From Xanthomonas rydalmerensis (GTDB lineage Bacteria > Pseudomonadota > Gammaproteobacteria > Xanthomonadales > Xanthomonadaceae): a stretch of 64,000 bases of DNA. The position numbers and the translations under genes were made by a program. This document shows positions 15,574-44,262 of the stretch, in pieces. The DNA lies in assembly GCF_033170385.1 (NCBI RefSeq), contig NZ_CP126170.1, positions 2,566,001 to 2,630,000 on the forward strand, written 5' to 3'. Under the pieces are notes generated by a model. That model was not told the origin of the DNA, did not search any database, and saw only the letters and a list, made by a program, of their open reading frames with translations. The stretch's first letter is position 1. Each line of letters opens with the position of its first letter.

Positions 15574-17295
15574 ATGGCGCTTGCGATCAGCAAAGACACT
15601 TTCAGCAGCGAAAAGGCGGGCGCCTGGTTCGACCGCCTGCAGAGCCTGCAGCTCACCCGCCGCATCGGCCTGATGGCGATGATCGCGGTGGCGGTGGCGG
15701 CCGGCCTGTTCGTGTTCTTCTGGTCGCAGAAGCCGGCCTACACCCCGCTGTACACCGGCCTGGACGAGAAAGGCACGGCCGAGGCCACCGACCTGCTGCG
15801 CACCGCGCAGATCCCGTTCAAGCTCGACCAGGCCACCGGCGCGATCACCGTGCCGGAGGACAAGCTGTACGACGCGCGGCTGAAGCTGGCCGGCTCCGGC
15901 CTGACCGACAACGGCAACATGGGTTTCGAGGTGATGGAGAAGGATCCCGGCTTCGGGGTCAGCCAGTTCGTGGAGAACGCGCGCTACCAGCACGCCCTGG
16001 AAACCGAACTGGCCCGCACCATCTCCAGCCTGCGCCCGGTGCGCGAGGCGCGGGTGCACCTGGCCATTCCCAAGCCGAGCGCGTTCACCCGCCAGCGCGA
16101 GGCCGCCAGCGCCTCGGTGGTGCTGGAACTGCGTGGCGGCACCACCCTGGAACGCAACCAGGTCGATGCGATCGTCAACATGGTCGCCTCCAGCATCCCC
16201 GACCTGGCACCGGATCGCGTCACCGTGGTCGACCAGAGCGGGCGCATGCTGACCATCGCCGACCCCAACAGCGACGCCGCGCTCAACGCCGCCCAGTTCG
16301 ATCAGGTGCGCCGCCAGGAAAGCGCCTACAACCAGCGCATCCGCGAACTGCTGGAGCCGATGACCGGCCCGGGCCGGGTCAACCCGGAAGTGAACGTGGA
16401 CATGGACTTCTCGGTGGTCGAGGAAGCGCGCGAGCTGTACAACGGCGACCCGCCGAAGCTGCGCAGCGAGCAGGTCAGCGACAGCAGCACCCAGACCGGC
16501 GGCCCGCAGGGCGCGCCGGGCGCGACCAGCAACTCGCCGGGCAGCGCGCCGGGCCAGCCGGGCGCCACTGGCGCTCCGCCTGCACCGGGCACGGCCGGCA
16601 CCCAACAAGCCGCCGCCGCGACGCCGACCGAGAGCTCCAAGAGCGCCACCCGCAACTACGAACTGGACCGTACCCTGCAGCACACCCGGCAGCCGGCCGG
16701 GCGCATCAAGCGCGTCTCGGTGGCGGTGCTGGTGGACCACGTGATGCGTCCCGGCGCCAAGGGCAAGATGACCGAGCAGGCGCTCAGCGCCGCCGAGCTG
16801 ACCCGCATCGAAGGCCTGGTCAAGCAGGCGGTGGGCTTCAACGCCGAACGTGGCGACACCGTCTCGGTGATGAACGCACCGTTCGTGCGCACGGCGCCGG
16901 AAGCGGAAGACAAGCCCGGTTGGTGGGAAGATCCGCGGGTGATGAACGGCCTGCGCCTGGTGCTGGGTGCGGCGGTGGTGCTGGCGCTGCTGTTCGGCGT
17001 GCTGCGCCCGGCGCTGCGCCAGATCGCCGGTCCCGCGCCGGCCGCGGCGGTCGGCCACGACCGCGACGGCAACGAACCGCGCGATGCCAAGCTGTCGATG
17101 CTCGACGACGACAACCCGCTGCTGCCGTCGCTGGGCGAGGACACCGCCAGCCTCAGCGGCGGCAGCGGCGGCAACCCCGCCATCGCCCTGCCCGACGCCT
17201 ACGAGGAACGGTTGCGCCAGGCCCGCGAAGCGGTCAAACAAGATTCCAAGCGCGTGGCGCAGGTCGTGAAGGGATGGGTCGCCAGTGAAGCCTGA
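15574..17295 (+). CDS. fliF: Flagellar MS-ring protein FliF
   Basis: A 573-residue inner-membrane ring protein. The first transmembrane helix is at residues 32-50 (IGLMAMIAVAVAAGLFVFFW) and the second near 459-480. Between them are the ring-building motifs of the YscJ/FliF fold, and residues ~305-350 form a Gly/Pro/Ala/Ser-rich disordered loop. The C-terminal cytoplasmic tail (RVAQVVKGWV) is the expected FliG-binding helix. fliG starts inside its last codons, so the two are translationally coupled, fitting their stoichiometric assembly. Length is normal for the family. Confidence 0.96.
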   Translation: MALAISKDTFSSEKAGAWFDRLQSLQLTRRIGLMAMIAVAVAAGLFVFFWSQKPAYTPLYTGLDEKGTAEATDLLRTAQIPFKLDQATGAITVPEDKLYDARLKLAGSGLTDNGNMGFEVMEKDPGFGVSQFVENARYQHALETELARTISSLRPVREARVHLAIPKPSAFTRQREAASASVVLELRGGTTLERNQVDAIVNMVASSIPDLAPDRVTVVDQSGRMLTIADPNSDAALNAAQFDQVRRQESAYNQRIRELLEPMTGPGRVNPEVNVDMDFSVVEEARELYNGDPPKLRSEQVSDSSTQTGGPQGAPGATSNSPGSAPGQPGATGAPPAPGTAGTQQAAAATPTESSKSATRNYELDRTLQHTRQPAGRIKRVSVAVLVDHVMRPGAKGKMTEQALSAAELTRIEGLVKQAVGFNAERGDTVSVMNAPFVRTAPEAEDKPGWWEDPRVMNGLRLVLGAAVVLALLFGVLRPALRQIAGPAPAAAVGHDRDGNEPRDAKLSMLDDDNPLLPSLGEDTASLSGGSGGNPAIALPDAYEERLRQAREAVKQDSKRVAQVVKGWVASEA

Positions 17296-18295
17296 TGCGA
17301 ATGCAATGAACGGGACCCAGCGCGCCGCCGTGCTGCTGCTGTCGCTCGGCGAGGCCGACGCGGCCGAGGTGCTCAAGCACATGGACCCCAAGGAGGTGCA
17401 GAAGATCGGCATCGCCATGGCGACGCTGAGCGGCATCTCGCGCGACCAGGTCGACAAGGTCATGGAAGAGTTCAACGCCGAGCTGGGCAGCAAGACCTCG
17501 CTGGGCGTGGGCGCCGACGACTACATCCGCAACGTGCTGGTGCAGGCGCTGGGCGCCGACAAGGCCGGCAGCCTGATCGACCGCATCCTGCTGGGCCGCA
17601 ACACCACCGGCCTGGACACGCTGAAGTGGATGGATCCGCGCGCGATCGCCGACCTGGTGCGCAACGAGCATCCGCAGATCATCGCTATCGTGATGGCGCA
17701 CCTGGACAACGACCAGGCCGCCGAGGCGCTGAAGCTGCTGCCCGAGCGCACCCGCGCCGACGTGCTGATGCGCATCGCCACCCTCGACGGCATCCCGCCG
17801 CACGCGCTCAACGAACTCAACGAGATCATGGAGCGGCAGTTCTCCGGCAACCAGAACCTGAAGTCCTCGAACGTGGGCGGGGTCAAGGTCGCGGCGAACA
17901 TCCTCAACTTCCTGGACAGCGGCGCCGACCAGGGTGTGCTGGCGGCGATCAGCAAGATCGACGCCGACCTGGGCAGCCGCATCCAGGACCTGATGTTCGT
18001 GTTCGACAACCTGGTGGAGCTGGACGACCGCGGGCTGCAGACCATGCTGCGCGAGGTCAGCGGCGACCGCCTCGGCCTGGCCCTGCGCGGCGCCGACATC
18101 AAGGTGCGCGACAAGATCACCAAGAACATGTCCCAGCGCGCCGCCGAGATCCTGCTCGAAGACATGGAAGCGCGCGGCCCGGTGCGCCTGGCCGACGTGG
18201 AGGCCGCGCAGAAGGAGATCCTGGCGATCGTGCGGCGTCTGGCCGATGAGGGCGTGATCAGCCTCGGCGGCGGTGGTGCGGAGGCCATGGTATGA
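17285..18295 (+). CDS. fliG: Flagellar motor switch protein FliG
   Basis: A 336-residue rotor protein that binds FliF, FliM and the stator. The middle-domain EHPQ motif is in NEHPQIIAIVM, the hinge in GGVKVAANILNFLD, and the torque helix carries the conserved charges in LVELDDRGLQTMLREVSGDR. I list GTG 17285, which overlaps the fliF stop; ATG 17306 (MNGTQRAAVLLLSLGE) is an equally plausible start and matches the usual N terminus. The stop overlaps the fliH start. Confidence 0.95.
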   Translation: MKPDANAMNGTQRAAVLLLSLGEADAAEVLKHMDPKEVQKIGIAMATLSGISRDQVDKVMEEFNAELGSKTSLGVGADDYIRNVLVQALGADKAGSLIDRILLGRNTTGLDTLKWMDPRAIADLVRNEHPQIIAIVMAHLDNDQAAEALKLLPERTRADVLMRIATLDGIPPHALNELNEIMERQFSGNQNLKSSNVGGVKVAANILNFLDSGADQGVLAAISKIDADLGSRIQDLMFVFDNLVELDDRGLQTMLREVSGDRLGLALRGADIKVRDKITKNMSQRAAEILLEDMEARGPVRLADVEAAQKEILAIVRRLADEGVISLGGGGAEAMV

Positions 18296-22854: not shown

Positions 22855-23862
22855 ATGACCGACCTGCTTTCCCAAGACGAGATCGATGCCCTGTTGCATG
22901 GCGTCGATGCCGGCGTGGTGGATACCGAGCCGGCGGCGGCCGAGCCGGGTGAAGCGCGCAACTACGACTTCTCCAGCCAGGACCGGATCATCCGGGGGCG
23001 CATGCCGACCCTGGAGATGGTCAACGAGCGCTTCGCACGCCTGTGGCGGATCGGCCTGTTCAACCTGATCCGGCGCTCGGCCGACCTGTCGGTGCGCGGC
23101 ATCGACCTGATCAAGTTCAACGACTACATGCACTCGCTGTACGTGCCGAGCAACCTGAACCTGATCAAGTTCAAGCCGTTGCGCGGCACCGGCCTGATCG
23201 TGTTCGAGCCGACCCTGGTGTTCACCGTGGTCGACAACTTCTTCGGCGGCGACGGCCGCTACCCCACCCGCATCGAAGGCCGCGAATTCACCCCGACCGA
23301 GATGCGGGTGATCCAGCTGATGCTCAAGCAGACCTTCGCCGACCTGGCCGAAGCCTGGGCGCCGGTGATGGAGGTGGACTTCGAGTACATCAATTCCGAG
23401 GTCAACCCGCACTTCGCCAACATCGTCACCCCGCGCGAGTACGTGGTGGTCAGCCGCTTCCACGTGGAGCTGGAAGGCGGCGGCGGCGAGATCCACGTGA
23501 CCCTGCCGTACTCGATGCTGGAGCCGATCCGCGAACTGCTCGACGCCGGCATCCAGAGCGACCGCGTCGACCGCGACGAAAGCTGGAACATCATGCTGCG
23601 CGAGCAGCTGTTCGGCTCGGAGGTCACCATTTCCAGCGTGCTGGCGCAGAAGCAGATGAGCCTGCGCGAGCTGACCCGGTTGAAGATCGGCGACGTGCTC
23701 CCGATCGACCTGCCCAAGCAGGTGCCGCTGTGCGTGGAGAACATCCCGGTGTTCACCGGCGAGTTCGGCATCTCGCGCGGCCAGAACGCGGTGAAGATCA
23801 CCGCCACCCATCCCCCCGGCGCGCTGCGCCGTCGTCCCGCTCTCCAGGAAGACCTGCCATGA
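22855..23862 (+). CDS. fliM: Flagellar motor switch protein FliM
   Basis: A 335-residue C-ring protein. The N-terminal CheY-P binding segment is DLLSQDEIDALLHGV at residues 3-17. The central domain includes the conserved RFARLWRIGLFN and FFGGDGRYPTRIEGR segments, and the C terminus carries a SpoA fold. It passes CheY-P binding to FliG to set rotation. The stop overlaps the fliN ATG, coupling synthesis of the two C-ring proteins. Confidence 0.96.
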   Translation: MTDLLSQDEIDALLHGVDAGVVDTEPAAAEPGEARNYDFSSQDRIIRGRMPTLEMVNERFARLWRIGLFNLIRRSADLSVRGIDLIKFNDYMHSLYVPSNLNLIKFKPLRGTGLIVFEPTLVFTVVDNFFGGDGRYPTRIEGREFTPTEMRVIQLMLKQTFADLAEAWAPVMEVDFEYINSEVNPHFANIVTPREYVVVSRFHVELEGGGGEIHVTLPYSMLEPIRELLDAGIQSDRVDRDESWNIMLREQLFGSEVTISSVLAQKQMSLRELTRLKIGDVLPIDLPKQVPLCVENIPVFTGEFGISRGQNAVKITATHPPGALRRRPALQEDLP

Positions 23863-25778: not shown

Positions 25779-26055
25779 GCAAGAGCTTTCGCCTTGTGGC
25801 GAGCCTTCTGAACAGCAAGAGCTTTCGCCTTGCGGCGAGCCTTCTGAACAGCAAGAGCTTTCGCCTTGCGGCGAGCCTTCTGAACAGCAAGAGCTTTCGC
25901 CTTGCGGCGAGCCTTCTGAACAGCAAGAGCTTTCGCCTTGCGGCGAGCCTTCTGAACAGCAAGAGCTTTCGCCTTGCGGCGAGCCTTCTGAACAGCAAGA
26001 GCTTTCGCCTTGCGGCGAGCCTTCTGAACAGCAAGAGCTTTCGCCTTGCGGCGAG
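25779..26055. repeat. 36-bp tandem repeat array between fliQ and fliR
   Basis: The segment AAGAGCTTTCGCCTTGCGGC recurs eight times at an exact 36-bp period (25781, 25817, 25853, 25889, 25925, 25961, 25997, 26033). Units are identical except for one C/T change in the first. There are no spacers, so this is a tandem array, not CRISPR. Because 36 is a multiple of three and units lack stops, long open frames appear in several frames on both strands; I regard them as non-coding. Confidence 0.97.
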
Positions 26056-38259: not shown

Positions 38260-40011
38260 ATGAGCGCCGTACCCGACGACATCGCTGCCGACTTCATCAT
38301 CGAGGCCCAGGAGATCCTGGACCGGCTCGGCGAGCAGTTGGTGTCGCTGGAGCAGGCGCCCGAGGACAGCGGCCAGCTCAACGCCGTGTTCCGCGGCTTC
38401 CACACGCTCAAGGGCGGCGCCGGCTTCCTGGCGATCAACGCCATGGTCGAGCTGTGCCACGCCGCGGAGGAAACCCTGGGCATGGCCCGCGCCGGCCAGG
38501 CCACCCTGCAGGCGCGGCACTTCGACGCCGCGCAGCAGTCGCTGGACTACCTGCAGTCGATGCTCGACGCCTTCGGCAGCGGCCAGGAGCCGCCGCGTGC
38601 GCCAGCGGAACTGATCGCGCAGTTCGACGCGCACGGCGATGCCGCCCCGGCACCGGCCCCGGCCAAGAGCGCCGCGCCGGCGCCCGCCCCCGCAGCGGCC
38701 ACCGCCGCGGCCGCGGGGGATCTGATCAGCGACGACGAATTCGAAGCGCTGCTGGACCAGTTGCACGGCGATGCGCCGCCGACGGCCACGCCGCAGGCGC
38801 TGCAGCCGGCGCCGCGCGCGCCCAGCGCCGCGCCCAAGGCCGCGGCCGCCCCGGCCAAGGCCGCCGAACCCGAACACACCGTGCGTGTGGACACCAAGCG
38901 CCTGGACGCGATCGTCAACCTGATCGGCGAACTGGTGCTCTCGCGCAACCGACTCAAGACCCTGCGCGTGCGCCTGCGCGACGAGGAACTGGACCGCGCG
39001 GTCAGCAGCCTGGACATCGCCACCGCGCGCCTGCAGTCGGCGGTCATGCGCACGCGCATGCAGCCGGTCGGCAAGGTGTTCTCGCGCTTCCCCAAGGTCG
39101 CGCGCGACGTCGCCCGCTCCCTCAACAAGGAAGTGGAACTGGAACTGATCGGCGCCGATACCGAACTGGACCGCAACCTGGTCGAGGCGCTGGCCGATCC
39201 GCTGGTGCACCTGGTGCGCAACGCCATCGACCACGGCATCGAGGCGCCGGCGCTGCGCGAGGCCACCGGCAAGCCGCGCGGCGGCCACGTGCGCCTGTCG
39301 GCGCAGCAGGAAGGCGACTACGTCAGCATCGAGGTGCAGGACGACGGCGCCGGCATCGACCCGGAACGGCTACGCGCCAAGGCCCGCGAGAAGGGCCTGA
39401 TCGACCCCGAGGCCGCAGCCCGCCTGACCACCGAGGAATGCCTGCACCTGGTGTTCCTGCCCGGCTTCTCGACCAAGGCCGAAGTCACCGATATCTCCGG
39501 CCGCGGCGTCGGCATGGACGTGGTGCAGTCGCGCATCCGCGAACTCAGCGGACAGATCCAGATCCAGTCGGAACTGGGTCGCGGCAGCCGCTTCCTGATC
39601 CGCGTGCCGCTGACCCTGGCGATCCTGCCGACCCTGCTGGTGCAGGCCGGCGACACCGTCTACGCACTGCCGCTGGCGCGCGTGGTGGAAGTGCTGCACG
39701 CCCCGCGCCGCTCGCTGGGCTGGTTCGACGGCCGCGCCGTGCTCGACCGGCAGTCGCATACCCTGCCACTGGTGGACCTGCGCCAGTGGCTCAACATCGA
39801 CGCCCCGCAACTGCCGCTGCTGACCGTGGTGGTGCTGCAGGCCGGCGAATCGCGCATGGGCCTGGTCGTGGACCAGGTCCGCGGCCGCGAGGAAGTGGTG
39901 ATCAAGCCGCTGCCGCGCTCCCTGCGCGGCCTGCCTGGCTACGCCGGCGCCACCCTCATCGGCGACGGCCGCCTGGCGCTGATCCTGGATGTGGATGGCT
40001 TGAAGGCCTGA
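38260..40011 (+). CDS. cheA: Chemotaxis histidine kinase CheA, first copy
   Basis: A 583-residue CheA. The Hpt domain carries phospho-acceptor H48 (HTLKGGAGF). An Ala/Pro linker contains the short motif ISDDEFEALLDQLHG instead of a full P2 domain; a similar peptide occurs in pseudomonad CheA. Dimerisation, HATPase (LVHLVRNAIDHGIE, GRGVGMDVV) and C-terminal CheW-like domains follow. The missing folded P2 suggests a different way of docking CheY. It closes the fliA-cheYZA series. Confidence 0.95.
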   Translation: MSAVPDDIAADFIIEAQEILDRLGEQLVSLEQAPEDSGQLNAVFRGFHTLKGGAGFLAINAMVELCHAAEETLGMARAGQATLQARHFDAAQQSLDYLQSMLDAFGSGQEPPRAPAELIAQFDAHGDAAPAPAPAKSAAPAPAPAAATAAAAGDLISDDEFEALLDQLHGDAPPTATPQALQPAPRAPSAAPKAAAAPAKAAEPEHTVRVDTKRLDAIVNLIGELVLSRNRLKTLRVRLRDEELDRAVSSLDIATARLQSAVMRTRMQPVGKVFSRFPKVARDVARSLNKEVELELIGADTELDRNLVEALADPLVHLVRNAIDHGIEAPALREATGKPRGGHVRLSAQQEGDYVSIEVQDDGAGIDPERLRAKAREKGLIDPEAAARLTTEECLHLVFLPGFSTKAEVTDISGRGVGMDVVQSRIRELSGQIQIQSELGRGSRFLIRVPLTLAILPTLLVQAGDTVYALPLARVVEVLHAPRRSLGWFDGRAVLDRQSHTLPLVDLRQWLNIDAPQLPLLTVVVLQAGESRMGLVVDQVRGREEVVIKPLPRSLRGLPGYAGATLIGDGRLALILDVDGLKA

Positions 40012-40041
40012 GGGGCCGGGATTGGGGAATGGGGATTGGGG
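40012..40041 (+). repeat. Plus-strand G-quadruplex motif after cheA
   Basis: Five G-runs (40012-15, 40018-20, 40024-27, 40031-34, 40038-41) are separated by CC, ATT, AAT and ATT. This satisfies the four-run quadruplex pattern with short loops. It starts immediately at the cheA stop. Confidence 0.85.
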
Positions 40042-40080
40042 AGTCGTAAGAGCGGCTTCCCTGGCGCTTCTCTGCTTCTT

Positions 40081-40324
40081 GTAGGAGCGGCTTCAGCCGC
40101 GACGCGGTGAGGCTGGGACTCGGGAATCGGGATTGGGGAATCGCAAAAGCGGCTCGCCGCCGCATCGGTTCCCTTGTAGGAGCGGCTTCAGCCGCGACGC
40201 CGTGAAGCCGGGATCGGAGCTTGGCGATCGCACGCGCGGCGCACTACTCCCTACCGACACGATCCGAACGATCGTGCATAGGCACGCGCCAAGGTCAGCG
40301 CGTCGCGGCTGAAGCCGCTCCTAC
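40081..40324. repeat. Three REP-like palindromic elements between cheA and motC
   Basis: GTAGGAGCGGCTTCAGCCGC occurs at 40081 and 40176 in direct orientation and as its reverse complement at 40305-40324 (element 40300-40324). Each unit is itself a partial palindrome. Together they can form a large cruciform-like hairpin. No gene lies in 40012-40429. Confidence 0.9.
40115..40138 (+). repeat. Second plus-strand G-quadruplex motif
   Basis: GGG-ACTC-GGG-AATC-GGG-ATT-GGGG, four runs with loops of 3-4 bases, between the first two REP-like units. Confidence 0.8.
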
Positions 40325-41177: not shown

Positions 41178-42125
41178 ATGGCCCGCAAGCACTCCCACGA
41201 CGAGCACGCCAACCACGAGGCATGGGCCATCCCCTATGCCGACCTGATGACGTTGCTGCTCGCCTTCTTCGTGGTGATGTACGCGCTGTCCACGATCAAC
41301 GAAGCCAAGTACCGGGTGATGGCCGACGCGATGAGCGCCGCGTTCGGCGGTACCCCCAAGACCCTGCGCCCGGTGCAGGTCGGCGACCAGGCCTTGCAGG
41401 GCCAGGGCGGCGAGCGCCCGACCCCGATCAAGTCCAGCCCGGCGCTGACCCTGCCCGATCCCAACCGCCTGCCCTCCGGCAATGCGCAGCGCGGCGACGA
41501 CCTGCGCGACGCGCAGCAGTTGCGCCGCGCGCAACGCCAGCTCGACAGCATCGCCGACCGTCTCGGCGCCGCGCTGGCGCCGCTGATCCAGAAGAAGCTG
41601 ATCACCGTGCGCCGCGCCGGGCTGTGGATCGAAGTGGAGATCAACAGCGACATCCTGTTCGGCTCTGGCTCGGCCGCGCTGGACCAGAGCGCGCGCGCCA
41701 CCCTGGCGGAACTGGCGCAGGTGCTGGCCGGCGTGCCCAACGGGGTGCGCGTGGAGGGCTACACCGACAACACCCCGATCGCCACCTTGCAGTTCCCGTC
41801 GAACTGGGAACTGTCGGCGGCGCGCGCGGCCAGCGTGGTCCACCTGTTCGCCGACCAGGGCCTGCAGCCCTCGCGGCTGTCGATGATCGGCTACGGCCAG
41901 TTCCGCCCGCGCGCCAGCAACGACACGCCGGCCGGCCGCAACGCCAACCGCCGCGTGGTGCTGGTGATCCTGGCCGATTCCGGCGACAGCAGCGATCCGA
42001 CGCCGTCGGCCCCCGACCGTTTGAGCGCCGGCGCCGCGCCGGCCACTTCGACCCCCCCCGCCGCGGCGGCCGCCGGCAATGCCGGCGGTTCCCGCGCAGT
42101 ACCTGCCATTGAAGGAGTCAACTGA
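41178..42125 (+). CDS. motD: Flagellar stator protein MotD (MotB family)
   Basis: A 315-residue partner of MotC. A basic N terminus is followed by the plug/transmembrane helix YADLMTLLLAFFVVMYALS with proton-carrying D22. The OmpA-like peptidoglycan-binding domain is in the C-terminal half (VEGYTDNTPI, ELSAARAASVV). The tail is Pro/Ala rich. A TTG six bases upstream is an alternative start; ATG 41178 is standard. It ends overlapping the ParA-like gene (TGATG). Confidence 0.93.
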   Translation: MARKHSHDEHANHEAWAIPYADLMTLLLAFFVVMYALSTINEAKYRVMADAMSAAFGGTPKTLRPVQVGDQALQGQGGERPTPIKSSPALTLPDPNRLPSGNAQRGDDLRDAQQLRRAQRQLDSIADRLGAALAPLIQKKLITVRRAGLWIEVEINSDILFGSGSAALDQSARATLAELAQVLAGVPNGVRVEGYTDNTPIATLQFPSNWELSAARAASVVHLFADQGLQPSRLSMIGYGQFRPRASNDTPAGRNANRRVVLVILADSGDSSDPTPSAPDRLSAGAAPATSTPPAAAAAGNAGGSRAVPAIEGVN

Positions 42126-42907
42126 TGCGCATCTGGGCGATCGCCAACCAGAAAGGTGGCGTGGGCAAGACCACCACCACGCTGGCCATGGGCCGTGGGC
42201 TGGCCATGCTCGGGCACCGCGTGCTGATGCTCGATCTCGATCCGCACGCCTCGCTGACCCGGGCCTTCGACGTGCCGCAGGAACCGCAGCCGCCGGGCGT
42301 GCTGGACCTGTTCGGGACCCCGCCGGGCGAACTGGCCGCGCTGGCCCGCGACACCGCGGTCGAGCGGCTGAGCTTCGTCTGCGGGCAGACCGCGCTGGCC
42401 ACGCTGGAACGGCGTAGCGCCAACCAGCCCGGTTTGGGCCTGGCGCTGCAGCAGGCCATGGCCCGCCACGCCGGCCAGCACGACTACATCCTGCTCGACT
42501 GCCCACCGACCCTGGGCCTGCTGATGATCAATGCGCTGGCCGCGGCCGACCGCGTGATCATCCCGACCCAGGCCGAGCCGCTGGCCCTGCACGGCCTAGC
42601 CAGCATGGTCCGCACCGTGGACATGGTCGAACGCTCGCGGCGCCGGCCGCTGCCCGCCTCGATCCTGCCGACCCTGTTCGACAAGCGCACCCGCGCCGGC
42701 AACGAGACCCTGCGACAGATGCAGGACAGCTACGGCGAACGGGTGTGGGAAGACGCGATCCCGGTCGACACCAAGATCTGCAACGTCAAGGCGCTGACCG
42801 TGGCCGGCGCGGCGGGCGACTACCCCGGCCGCGGTCTGGCCGCCTACCGCCGCGCGCTGGAATGGCTGCTGGCCAGCGACGCGACGCCGATGGAGCAAGC
42901 CGCATGA
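42125..42907 (+). CDS. ParA-family ATPase (ParC-like chemotaxis array positioning)
   Basis: A 260-residue ParA ATPase with deviant Walker A KGGVGKTTTT at residues 10-19, LDLDPHASLT and LLDCPPTLGLLMINAL. In Vibrio and Pseudomonas the ParA homologue ParC sits between motD and a CheW-like gene and places chemoreceptor arrays at the cell pole. The same order here (motC-motD-parA-cheW-like) supports that role rather than plasmid or chromosome partition. It overlaps both neighbours. Confidence 0.87.
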   Translation: MRIWAIANQKGGVGKTTTTLAMGRGLAMLGHRVLMLDLDPHASLTRAFDVPQEPQPPGVLDLFGTPPGELAALARDTAVERLSFVCGQTALATLERRSANQPGLGLALQQAMARHAGQHDYILLDCPPTLGLLMINALAAADRVIIPTQAEPLALHGLASMVRTVDMVERSRRRPLPASILPTLFDKRTRAGNETLRQMQDSYGERVWEDAIPVDTKICNVKALTVAGAAGDYPGRGLAAYRRALEWLLASDATPMEQAA

Positions 42908-44262
42908 GCACCCCCGGCATCATCGACGATTACCTGGAAGGCCTGCTCCACGACGTGATCGCCGAGGAGCAGAAGGCACCGCCAGCGAACCCCACGCCGG
43001 TCGCCGACGTGGACGCGGACGCCGAGATCCCGGCACCCGCCACCGCCGGTCCGACGCCCGAACAGATCGCCGCCGCGGTCCTGGCCGAAGCCGACTCCGA
43101 TCCGGCCCTGGCCGGCATCATGTCGCAGCAGGCGCTCGCGCCCGCGCCGGCCGGCCCGACACCCGAACAGATCGCCGCCGCGGTCCTGGCCGAAGCCGAC
43201 TCCGATCCGGCCCTGGCCGGCATCATGTCGCAGCAAGCACTCACGCCCGCGCCGGCCGGCCCAACGCCCGACGAGATCGCCGCCGCGGTCCTGGCCGAAG
43301 CCGATTCCGATCCGGCCCTGGCCGGCATCATGTCCCAGCAGGCACTCGCGCCCGCGCCGGCCGGTCCGACGCCCGAAGAGATCGCCGCCGCGGTCCTGGC
43401 CGAAGCCGATTCCGATCCGGCCCTGGCCGGCATCATGTCCCAGCAGGCACTCGCACCCGCGCCGGCCGGTCCGACGCCCGAACAGATCGCTGCCGCGGTC
43501 CTGGCCGAAGCCGATTCCGATCCGGCCCTGGCCGGCATCATGTCGCAGCAGGCACCCGTTGCCGCGCTCACGCCGGCCGAGCAGGCCGAGCGCCAGGCCG
43601 ACCTGGACGTGGTCGCGGCGATGGAGCGGCAACGCGCCACAACGCCGCGCAATCTCGCCGCCGAAGACGATGCCGCCGCCGCGCGTGCGGTCCAGCGCCC
43701 GCCGATGGCGGTGCCGCCGGAACGGCGCGCAGAAGCCAGCCGCGCACAGGCGGCCGGAGCGAAGCTGCCGCCGAATCTGCAGGCCTTCATGGCGCCGAGC
43801 GTGCCGCACGGCTCGGCCATCGCCCCCGAGCGCTTGGCCGAGCGCAGCACCCGCTGGCTGCGCCTGCGCTGCGGCGAGCAGGCCTACGCACTGGAACTGC
43901 TGAAGGTGCAGGAAGTGGTGCTGCCGGTGCCGCTGCTGGCGCTGCGTGGCACGCCACCGGCGATGCTGGGCATCATGAACCTGCGCGGCCAGGTGGTGCC
44001 GGTGATCGACCTGGGCCTGCACCTGGGCGCGGCGCCGATCGAGATGGACATGCTGACCCGGGTGGTGGTGCTGGAAGAGAACGGCGAGACCCTGGGCCTG
44101 CGCGTGTCCGCGGTGGAAGACGTGGCCAGCCTGCGCGACCAGCAGATCGAACCGCCGGACAACGCCCGCATCTGCCGCATTTCCAACCATCTGTTCCGCG
44201 GCGTGGCGCGTCTGGCGCAACAGCCGATGATCCTGCTCGACGCCGAGCAACTGCTGCACTGA
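42904..44262 (+). CDS. CheW-like ParP-type coupling protein with five internal repeats
   Basis: A 452-residue protein. An acidic N terminus (residues 1-48) is followed by five 35-residue repeats (residues 49 to ~217), a basic Ala-rich linker and a C-terminal CheW domain from about 316 (RWLRLRCGEQAYALELLKVQ, LGIMNLRGQVVPVIDLGLHL). ParP proteins of Vibrio and Pseudomonas combine an N-terminal ParC-binding region and a CheW-type domain that contacts MCPs and CheA; this fits. ATG 42904 overlaps the parA stop; the longer frame upstream is inside parA. No separate small CheW gene is in the window. Confidence 0.85.
   Translation: MSTPGIIDDYLEGLLHDVIAEEQKAPPANPTPVADVDADAEIPAPATAGPTPEQIAAAVLAEADSDPALAGIMSQQALAPAPAGPTPEQIAAAVLAEADSDPALAGIMSQQALTPAPAGPTPDEIAAAVLAEADSDPALAGIMSQQALAPAPAGPTPEEIAAAVLAEADSDPALAGIMSQQALAPAPAGPTPEQIAAAVLAEADSDPALAGIMSQQAPVAALTPAEQAERQADLDVVAAMERQRATTPRNLAAEDDAAAARAVQRPPMAVPPERRAEASRAQAAGAKLPPNLQAFMAPSVPHGSAIAPERLAERSTRWLRLRCGEQAYALELLKVQEVVLPVPLLALRGTPPAMLGIMNLRGQVVPVIDLGLHLGAAPIEMDMLTRVVVLEENGETLGLRVSAVEDVASLRDQQIEPPDNARICRISNHLFRGVARLAQQPMILLDAEQLLH
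43048..43557 (+). repeat. Five 105-bp coding repeats in the CheW-like gene
   Basis: Copies start at 43048, 43153, 43258, 43363 and 43468, exactly 105 bp apart. Each encodes GPTPEQIAAAVLAEADSDPA followed by LAGIMSQQ and a Pro/Ala hinge; differences are a few synonymous bases and E/D/Q changes at one position. The last unit is cut short after SQQA. High DNA identity implies recent expansion or ongoing homogenisation. Confidence 0.97.

What the first reader, a model, noticed from the sequence alone, without database searches (positions are those of the whole stretch)
42904..44262. ParP-type protein with an expandable five-repeat spacer
Five 35-residue, 105-bp units with near-identical DNA separate the acidic N terminus from the CheW domain. 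Each unit looks like an acidic amphipathic helix plus Pro/Ala hinge. It may serve as multiple docking sites for ParA or as a spacer that sets array reach. DNA homogeneity predicts strain-to-strain copy-number change.
Basis: partly seen in the sequence, partly recalled or inferred. Interest (0 to 1): 0.7.

Follow-up and report, generated by a model that had tools for sequence, protein, structure and literature searches.

The report
Chemotaxis pole adaptor with repeat linker
A Xanthomonas protein that probably fastens the bacterium's chemical-sensing array to the cell pole carries five near-identical copies of a short conserved segment in its flexible middle; the number of copies changes between close relatives, and related bacteria carry different repeated segments there, including one that also occurs in a partner protein of the array.

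Summary
The array is real: five 35-aa units (43048-43572) lie between a ParP-type N-terminal motif and a CheW domain, directly behind parC/parA.

Two things go beyond the finding. (1) The C-terminal domain is CheW-like, not the AIF domain of Vibrio-type ParP. In 19 of 19 family loci found through ParA alone the next gene scores as CheW (94-108 bits) and not as AIF (21-32), while 37 of 38 class or order loci have an AIF gene there and 34 of 38 a separate cheW behind it. Trees do not settle its origin; I read it as a ParP/CheW chimera. (2) The unit holds a core (LxE.xxDPxF/L) found with different periods in ten lineage consensuses. In sister genera the same linker carries other tandem motifs, including copies of the LID-like motif of the partner CheA; in one genus that motif is in ParP and absent from CheA (4 of 4 genomes read).

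This favours a multivalent docking array over an inert spacer. Its partner is unknown; ParA is not specifically supported, amphipathicity was not significant, and docking was not shown.

The parts
42125..42907 (+). parC: ParA-family ATPase, directly upstream and overlapping by 4 bases
   Evidence: Pfam AAA_31 E 3.3e-40; before the ParP-type gene in family, order and class relatives
42904..44262 (+). ParP-type adaptor, 452 aa: N-terminal motif, unit array, linker, CheW domain
42919..42954 (+). N-terminal motif IIDDYLEGLLHD, the ParP head (ParC contact inferred from Vibrio)
   Evidence: by far the best window for a profile of other family heads (27.1 against 9.5 for the next); form ALxxYLxxLL in front of the AIF Trp motif in 25 of 27 class-level loci. 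The 88 linkers were found by this motif, so they do not count as evidence for it
43048..43152 (+). unit 1 (35 aa)
43153..43257 (+). unit 2
43258..43362 (+). unit 3
43363..43467 (+). unit 4
43468..43572 (+). unit 5, end diverged
43858..44256 (+). CheW domain (residues 319-451), CheW-like and not AIF-like
   Evidence: Pfam; the three solved sequences hit are CheW; profile tests
38260..40011 (+). partner CheA of the same cluster
   Evidence: Pfam Hpt, H-kinase_dim, HATPase_c, CheW; no P2 family among the matches at E <= 5
38722..38769 (+). single LID-like motif LISDDEFEALLDQLHG in the P1-P3 linker of CheA
   Evidence: only place found in the genome at E <= 10; top hit of the LID profile in the window

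Best explanation
The gene encodes a polar-anchoring adaptor of the flagellar chemosensory array. Its N-terminal helix (IIDDYLEGLLHD) is the ParP head that contacts ParC. Its C-terminal domain is a CheW-like domain that places it in the array, where other Gammaproteobacteria use a ParP AIF domain plus a separate CheW. I infer that the ancestor of this family lost AIF and joined the ParP head and linker to CheW. The linker is a tandem array of short acidic helix-kink-helix docking motifs: here five copies of a core LxE.xxDPx(F/L). In sister genera it holds LID-like, WDDLP or LEAAFE-type motifs. The copies act together: each is a weak contact for another component of the polar array, so the number of units sets the avidity, and secondarily the reach, with which CheW-containing arrays are held at the ParC pole. 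Units are gained, lost and homogenised by recombination. Shown by sequence: architecture, recurrence of the core, copy-number change, homogenisation, CheW-like C-domain, LID-like copies in sister ParPs. Inferred: polar function, fusion origin, docking and avidity. Unknown: the binding partner.
For: Neighbours parC and CheA with LID-like motif. N-terminal motif shared with class-level ParPs. C-domain: in 19 of 19 family loci found through ParA alone the following frame scores as CheW (94-108 bits) over AIF (21-32), none has an AIF frame; of 38 class or order loci 37 have an AIF frame and 34 also a CheW frame. In a wider family set CheW beats AIF in 28 of 28, medians 107 and 27 bits. 16 of 16 family stretches show no second NLRG-type frame on the same strand in the next 2.4-3.4 kb; order-level outgroups read parC-parP(AIF)-cheW. 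In Vibrio a ParP head joined to CheA-P5 restored polar clusters in 65% of cells (PMC5706961, section read). Motif counts in 88 linkers against shuffles: U 203 vs 0.06, LID 29 vs 0.0, W 33 vs 0.01, F 24 vs 0.14. Core recurs in 10 lineage consensuses with other flanks. In clade 1, amino-acid change per four-fold change is 0.28 in the core, 0.46 in the hinge, 0.23 in the CheW domain. 3-6 units in 20 genomes; nearest unit in the own array far above chance (score 61 of 98; shuffles mean 4.1, maximum 10.8). LID-like motif in ParP and absent from CheA in 4 of 4 genomes read of one genus.
Against: No binding data for any unit. The AU test leaves open whether the C-domain joins AIF or CheW (p 0.496); a second tree puts it weakly with AIF (81/18). 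Its CheW scores (94-108) lie below those of true CheW genes (168-242), so it is a diverged CheW-like domain. The unit is not significantly amphipathic. Motif patterns were drawn from the sequences they count, and the P and partly the E and D of the core are required by the pattern. Core conservation within a clade is inflated by homogenisation. AlphaFold2 modelled the CheW domain poorly (mean pLDDT 55.5), so it says nothing on docking. 23 of 88 family ParPs have none of the four motifs, so the array is dispensable somewhere.
Confidence: 0.5

Rival explanations
1. The array is a tunable spacer: helical rods with Pro/Ala hinges that only set the distance between the ParC head and the CheW domain. 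Sequence is conserved because copies are homogenised and composition is constrained.
For: Head-to-CheW length varies from 65 to 350 residues in the 88 family linkers; the copy number changes in whole units within species; AlphaFold2 gives helix-kink-helix rods; the hinge is Pro/Ala-rich.
Against: The same core recurs in 10 lineage consensuses with different periods; other defined motifs, including the LID-like one, replace it in sister genera; the core is more constrained than the hinge.
Confidence: 0.27
2. The units are extra docking sites for ParC (ParA); the array feeds several ATPase contacts per ParP.
For: ParP binds ParC through its N-terminal region in Vibrio (PMC5706961, sections read); the first 30 residues of a ParC partner were docked on ParC in silico in another study (PMC10241942, passages).
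Against: 23 of 88 family ParPs carry the N-terminal motif without any of the four repeat families. Units carry no basic residue, whereas peptides that stimulate ParA ATPases are usually basic (recalled). The units are not among the top 14 windows of the N-terminal profile.
Confidence: 0.13
3. LID-like copies and units are response-regulator docking peptides: the LID-like motif resembles the FliM EIDAL peptide that CheY binds, and the linkers concentrate CheY or another regulator at the array.
For: The FliM N-terminus of this window ranks 3rd of 19,233 windows for the LID profile; CheY binds the FliM EIDAL motif (PMC6946799, passages); the CheA of this cluster shows no P2 family in Pfam; the motif sits on CheA or ParP alike.
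Against: The resemblance was noticed by eye before the scan; an unrelated window ranks above FliM; FliM ranks only 43rd for the unit profile; Vibrio CheA-LID is reported to bind ParP.
Confidence: 0.1

Closest known systems
ParP of the Vibrio ParC/ParP system (AIF domain)
   Same: Gene beside parC in the chemotaxis cluster, N-terminal motif, Pro-rich linker, SH3/CheW-fold C-domain, CheA with LID-like motif
   Different: C-domain is CheW-like, no Trp motif, no cheW gene found next door; linker carries tandem motifs with changing copy number
CheW
   Same: C-terminal domain (Pfam CheW E 4.5e-31; the three PDB sequences hit are CheW)
   Different: 300-residue N-terminal extension with ParP head and unit array; scores below true CheW genes
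CheA-LID
   Same: LID-like motif occurs in tandem in ParP linkers of sister genera, in the place of the units
   Different: The window's own units are not LID copies; its only LID-like motif is in CheA
H. neapolitanus ParC with CheW-annotated partner (PMC10241942)
   Same: An A/D ATPase with a partner annotated CheW whose N-terminus was docked on it
   Different: No repeats mentioned in the passages seen; whether that partner is AIF- or CheW-like was not examined here

Membership tests
ParP (Vibrio type) | Encoded beside parC in the chemotaxis cluster | tested here: met
ParP (Vibrio type) | N-terminal ParC-interaction region | tested here: inconclusive
   Sequence motif shared with 25 of 27 class-level loci; binding not testable
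ParP (Vibrio type) | C-terminal AIF domain, distinct from CheW | tested here: not met
   CheW profile beats AIF profile in 19 of 19 family loci found through ParA and in 28 of 28 of a wider set
ParP (Vibrio type) | Trp of the AIF domain needed for CheA binding (W305 in V. cholerae) | tested here: inconclusive
   A WLAG-type Trp motif is present in 25 of 27 class-level loci and absent from 80 of 80 family domains examined; that this Trp is W305 was not verified
ParP (Vibrio type) | Partner CheA carries a LID | tested here: inconclusive
   LID-like motif in the P1-P3 linker; its identity with the published LID is inferred from place and distribution, the 2014 paper was not held
CheW | CheW-like domain | tested here: met
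CheW | Single-domain protein | tested here: not met
   CheW domain is residues 319-451 of 452
CheA-LID motif (for the units) | DEFEALLDxLHG-type core | tested here: not met
   0 LID matches in the window's linker and in each of the 20 clade-1 linkers

The most novel reading that the evidence does not exclude
In Xanthomonadaceae the array-to-pole tether has been rebuilt: a ParP head fused to CheW replaces AIF, and the linker became an exchangeable rack of tandem docking motifs whose kind and number evolve quickly. The LID-like motif can sit on CheA, on ParP, or on both, which would mean that its receptor is a third array or polar partner rather than ParP's own AIF domain, possibly one that also reads FliM's EIDAL-type peptide.
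Probability: 0.2. Interest if true: 0.8.

Novelty: new variant of a known kind. Interest (0 to 1): 0.58.

Why it matters
How chemosensory arrays are tethered to a pole is known mainly from Vibrio. Here a large family of plant-associated and environmental bacteria appears to use a different build of the same tether, with a natural series of 0 to 7 motif copies and natural swaps of motif kind. That gives ready-made material to ask whether tethering depends on avidity or on linker length, and what the CheA LID really binds once AIF is gone.

Tried and rejected
Unit as a second LID: no LID pattern match in the 20 clade-1 linkers. Unit as an amphipathic helix above chance: not supported. Other genes of the own genome with the unit: none at E below 0.05. 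Other proteins with the clade-2 array: a region search gave 118 hits among the 8000 best candidates; read by eye, those with a name are Xanthomonas chemotaxis/CheW proteins and one had no Pfam domain. Phylogeny to prove the AIF-to-CheW swap: inconclusive; the first quick tree looked decisive (98) and the AU test took that back. Pfam labels Nif11 (PF07862) and SHOCT (PF09851) on some of these repeats are read as chance helix matches; on the CheA proteins the SHOCT scores lay below cut-off. A second AlphaFold2 job on a LID-bearing ParP, to look for in-cis docking, failed and was not repeated. A scan of the window with the unit profile gave FliG (17270-18292) as best hit outside ParP, score 8.1, not pursued.

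Controls that are weaker than they look. In one search the AIF rows had been picked by their Trp motif and the CheW and family rows by an NLRG-type motif, so 32 of 32 Trp, 34 of 34 and 28 of 28 NLRG are by construction; only 0 of 32 NLRG in AIF and 0 of 28 Trp in the family are free results. The 80 family domains were picked by an LRG-type motif (92 loci looked at), and the family loci came from a search with the window's own protein (107 of 297 genomes). One search repeats the test on loci found through ParA alone, with family rows in neither profile; most class and order rows are in the profiles. The core pattern fixes the P or restricts other positions.

Rows dropped: one search parsed 88 of 92 loci (L082, L084, L091, L133 not parsed; L091 is a cut contig end with unit-type repeats, L133 carries an ELEAVFEQA repeat), and it counts 5 of the 6 units of L045. 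One search read 25 of 27 chosen family ParPs (L087, L142 missed). In one search, 9 of 60 CheA stretches gave no match and L203 and L230 were cut or broken. One search missed 21 of 42 CheA linkers; the CheA counts therefore rest, partly read by eye, because the pattern misses variants such as DLDFDALLDSLHG. One search used 70 of the 120 proteins listed, grouped by hand by the names given. One search left out 7 of 89 rows; one search used 72 of 109.

Full report
The thing itself. The 452-aa reading frame 42904-44262 follows parA/parC with a 4-base overlap. It has an N-terminal motif IIDDYLEGLLHD, five 35-aa units at 43048-43572, an Ala/Pro-rich stretch and a CheW domain. The units share 86.7-96.2% DNA identity, hold 22 acidic and no basic residues, and were found nowhere else in the genome. 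The nearest named relatives seen are Xanthomonas sp. 3307 (98% protein identity) and Xanthomonas sp. F10 (92%), so the window is from the translucens/sacchari/albilineans side of Xanthomonas (inference).

Copy number. All 20 genomes of the genus held here have the gene, with 3 (3 genomes), 4 (2), 5 (9) or 6 (6) units and a constant 35-aa spacing. In other Xanthomonas the unit is about 27 aa long and there are 2-7 cores per protein. I grouped 70 of the 120 proteins listed into 13 named species: 10 show more than one count, 3 do not. Most differences are whole units: X. cucurbitae 6 against 4 (404 and 350 aa; longest contigs 4.76 and 4.54 Mb), X. campestris 6 against 5 (P0061 and P0094, 411 and 383 aa; longest contigs 5.18 and 5.13 Mb). 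Cautions: one of the ten X. campestris proteins counted as 5 (P0071) is full length with one decayed core; species names are the sources' own and some may be wrong; draft assemblies can collapse repeats.

Homogenisation. Within an array, four-fold sites of the cores differ by 13.9%; between species unit cores differ by 27.5%, while the CheW domains of the same species differ by 16.7%. The nearest unit lies in the same array with a score of 61 of 98, against a mean of 4.1 and a maximum of 10.8 in 500 label shuffles. The arrays thus evolve in concert. Between species, amino-acid change relative to four-fold change is 0.28 in the core, 0.46 in the hinge and 0.23 in the CheW domain. My unit pattern fixes some core positions, so the per-position counts are partly circular; the constant spacing shows that no unit inside an array was skipped.

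The linker as a place for motifs. Among 92 family loci, 88 linkers were parsed. Four motif families recur: U (the core of this unit) in 41 proteins, LID-like in 14, W (PTWDDLP) in 13, F (LEAAFE-type) in 10; 23 proteins have none. Totals are 203, 29, 33 and 24, against shuffle expectations of 0.06, 0.0, 0.01 and 0.14. U and LID never share a protein in this set; W occurs with F or U. The patterns were written after seeing the sequences, so the shuffles show that the motifs are not mere composition, not that they were predicted. Ten lineage consensuses of U keep L-x-E and D-P with a hydrophobic residue two places on, while flanks and period change; the P is required by the pattern.

LID. In Vibrio, CheA-LID lies between P2 and P3, occurs only with ParC/ParP, and is bound by the ParP AIF domain, for which W305 is needed (PMC5706961, introduction, sections 10 and 13 and the first part of the discussion read; PMC7534058, passages). 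In 18 of 18 class-level CheA linkers that could be read (20 fetched) I find 1-3 copies of DEFEALLDxLHG-type motifs. That this motif is the published LID is my inference. The window's CheA has one. In eight genomes of genus g16 (Pseudoxanthomonas by the names) both proteins carry it, ParP 1-3 copies and CheA 1-2. In genus g9, the 4 genomes whose CheA could be read (of 6 met) have no copy in CheA and 1-3 in ParP. Two genomes of g45 (G162, G178) have no recognisable copy in either protein and carry U. The four g9 cases may be one event.

The C-terminal domain. I first saw that 25 of 27 class-level loci have a frame with head and Trp motif (WLAG type) and that 80 of 80 family domains lack the Trp motif. 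Family domains score a median of 106.8 bits on a CheW profile and 27.0 on an AIF profile, 28 of 28. Because those family rows had been gathered by their CheW-type motifs, I repeated the test on loci found through ParA alone: in 19 of 19 family loci the frame after ParA scores 94-108 on CheW and 21-32 on AIF, and no AIF frame is present; of 38 class or order loci, 37 have an AIF frame and 34 also a CheW frame; the four without a CheW frame are L148, L152, L162 and L251, of which L251 and L162 are cut by a contig end (contig ends seen). True CheW genes score 168-242 there, so the family domain is CheW-like but diverged. Order-level outgroups read parC-parP(AIF)-cheW; 16 of 16 family stretches have no second NLRG-type frame on the same strand in the next 2.4-3.4 kb. 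A quick tree separated AIF from the rest at 98, but the AU test did not reject AIF plus family ParP (p 0.496), and a second tree put them together weakly (81/18) while setting AIF apart from all others at 100/100. Fusion of the ParP head with the downstream cheW explains domain type and missing gene in one step; it is the most economical reading, not a proven one. An engineered swap of AIF for CheA-P5 worked in Vibrio in 65% of cells (PMC5706961 section 13).

Structure. AlphaFold2 on 46 sequences gave mean pLDDT 55.5. The units come out as helix-kink-helix with block means mostly 60-77; the CheW domain is poorly modelled, so docking cannot be judged.

EIDAL lead. The window's FliM begins MTDLLSQDEIDALLHG. 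It ranks 3rd of 19,233 windows for the LID profile, 29th of 19,325 for the N-terminal profile and 43rd of 19,095 for U. CheY binds the FliM EIDAL motif (PMC6946799, passages). That FlhG, a MinD/ParA-family ATPase, binds the same FliM motif is recalled and comes from no call. This is a lead only.

In print. The titles listed by searches (20, 20, 19, 10, 10, 7 and 1 papers listed) show none on these repeats, on LID copies in ParP, or on a ParP/CheW chimera; search 97, for the LID-like letters, found no paper. Most subscription papers are not held, so this is weak evidence of absence.

Verdict. The protein works like ParP by context but fails one tested defining feature of it. The repeats are best read as a multivalent docking array with unknown partner (0.5), then spacer (0.27), ParA docking (0.13), response-regulator docking (0.1).

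Noticed in passing
25779-26055: Near-perfect tandem of a 36-bp unit, 7.7 copies, 99% matches.
   Followed up: no
40014-40217: 95-bp repeat, 2.1 copies, just after cheA and before the next gene.
   Followed up: no
FliM N-terminus, about 22855-22902: FliM EIDAL peptide resembles the LID-like motif of CheA (rank 3 of 19,233 windows).
   Followed up: partly
17270-18292 (FliG): Best hit of the unit profile outside ParP is the helix QIIAIVMAHLDNDQAA, score 8.1; that the gene is FliG is recalled from its sequence, no call named it.
   Followed up: no
L142, L282, L286 (ParP and CheA linkers): In-frame stretches such as TPPQPSPAGRGGS and SLPCSQGRVGEGS recur in ParP and CheA linkers of genus g45, as if a short repeated DNA element had been inserted into coding linkers.
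   Followed up: no
L133, L288, L289: Genus g22 ParPs carry several copies of a different unit, DELEAVFEQAHAEAKAAGVFNQ.
   Followed up: partly
L090-L106 (Stenotrophomonas-type loci): Thirteen ParP linkers there carry 1-4 copies of PTWDDLP-type motifs.
   Followed up: partly
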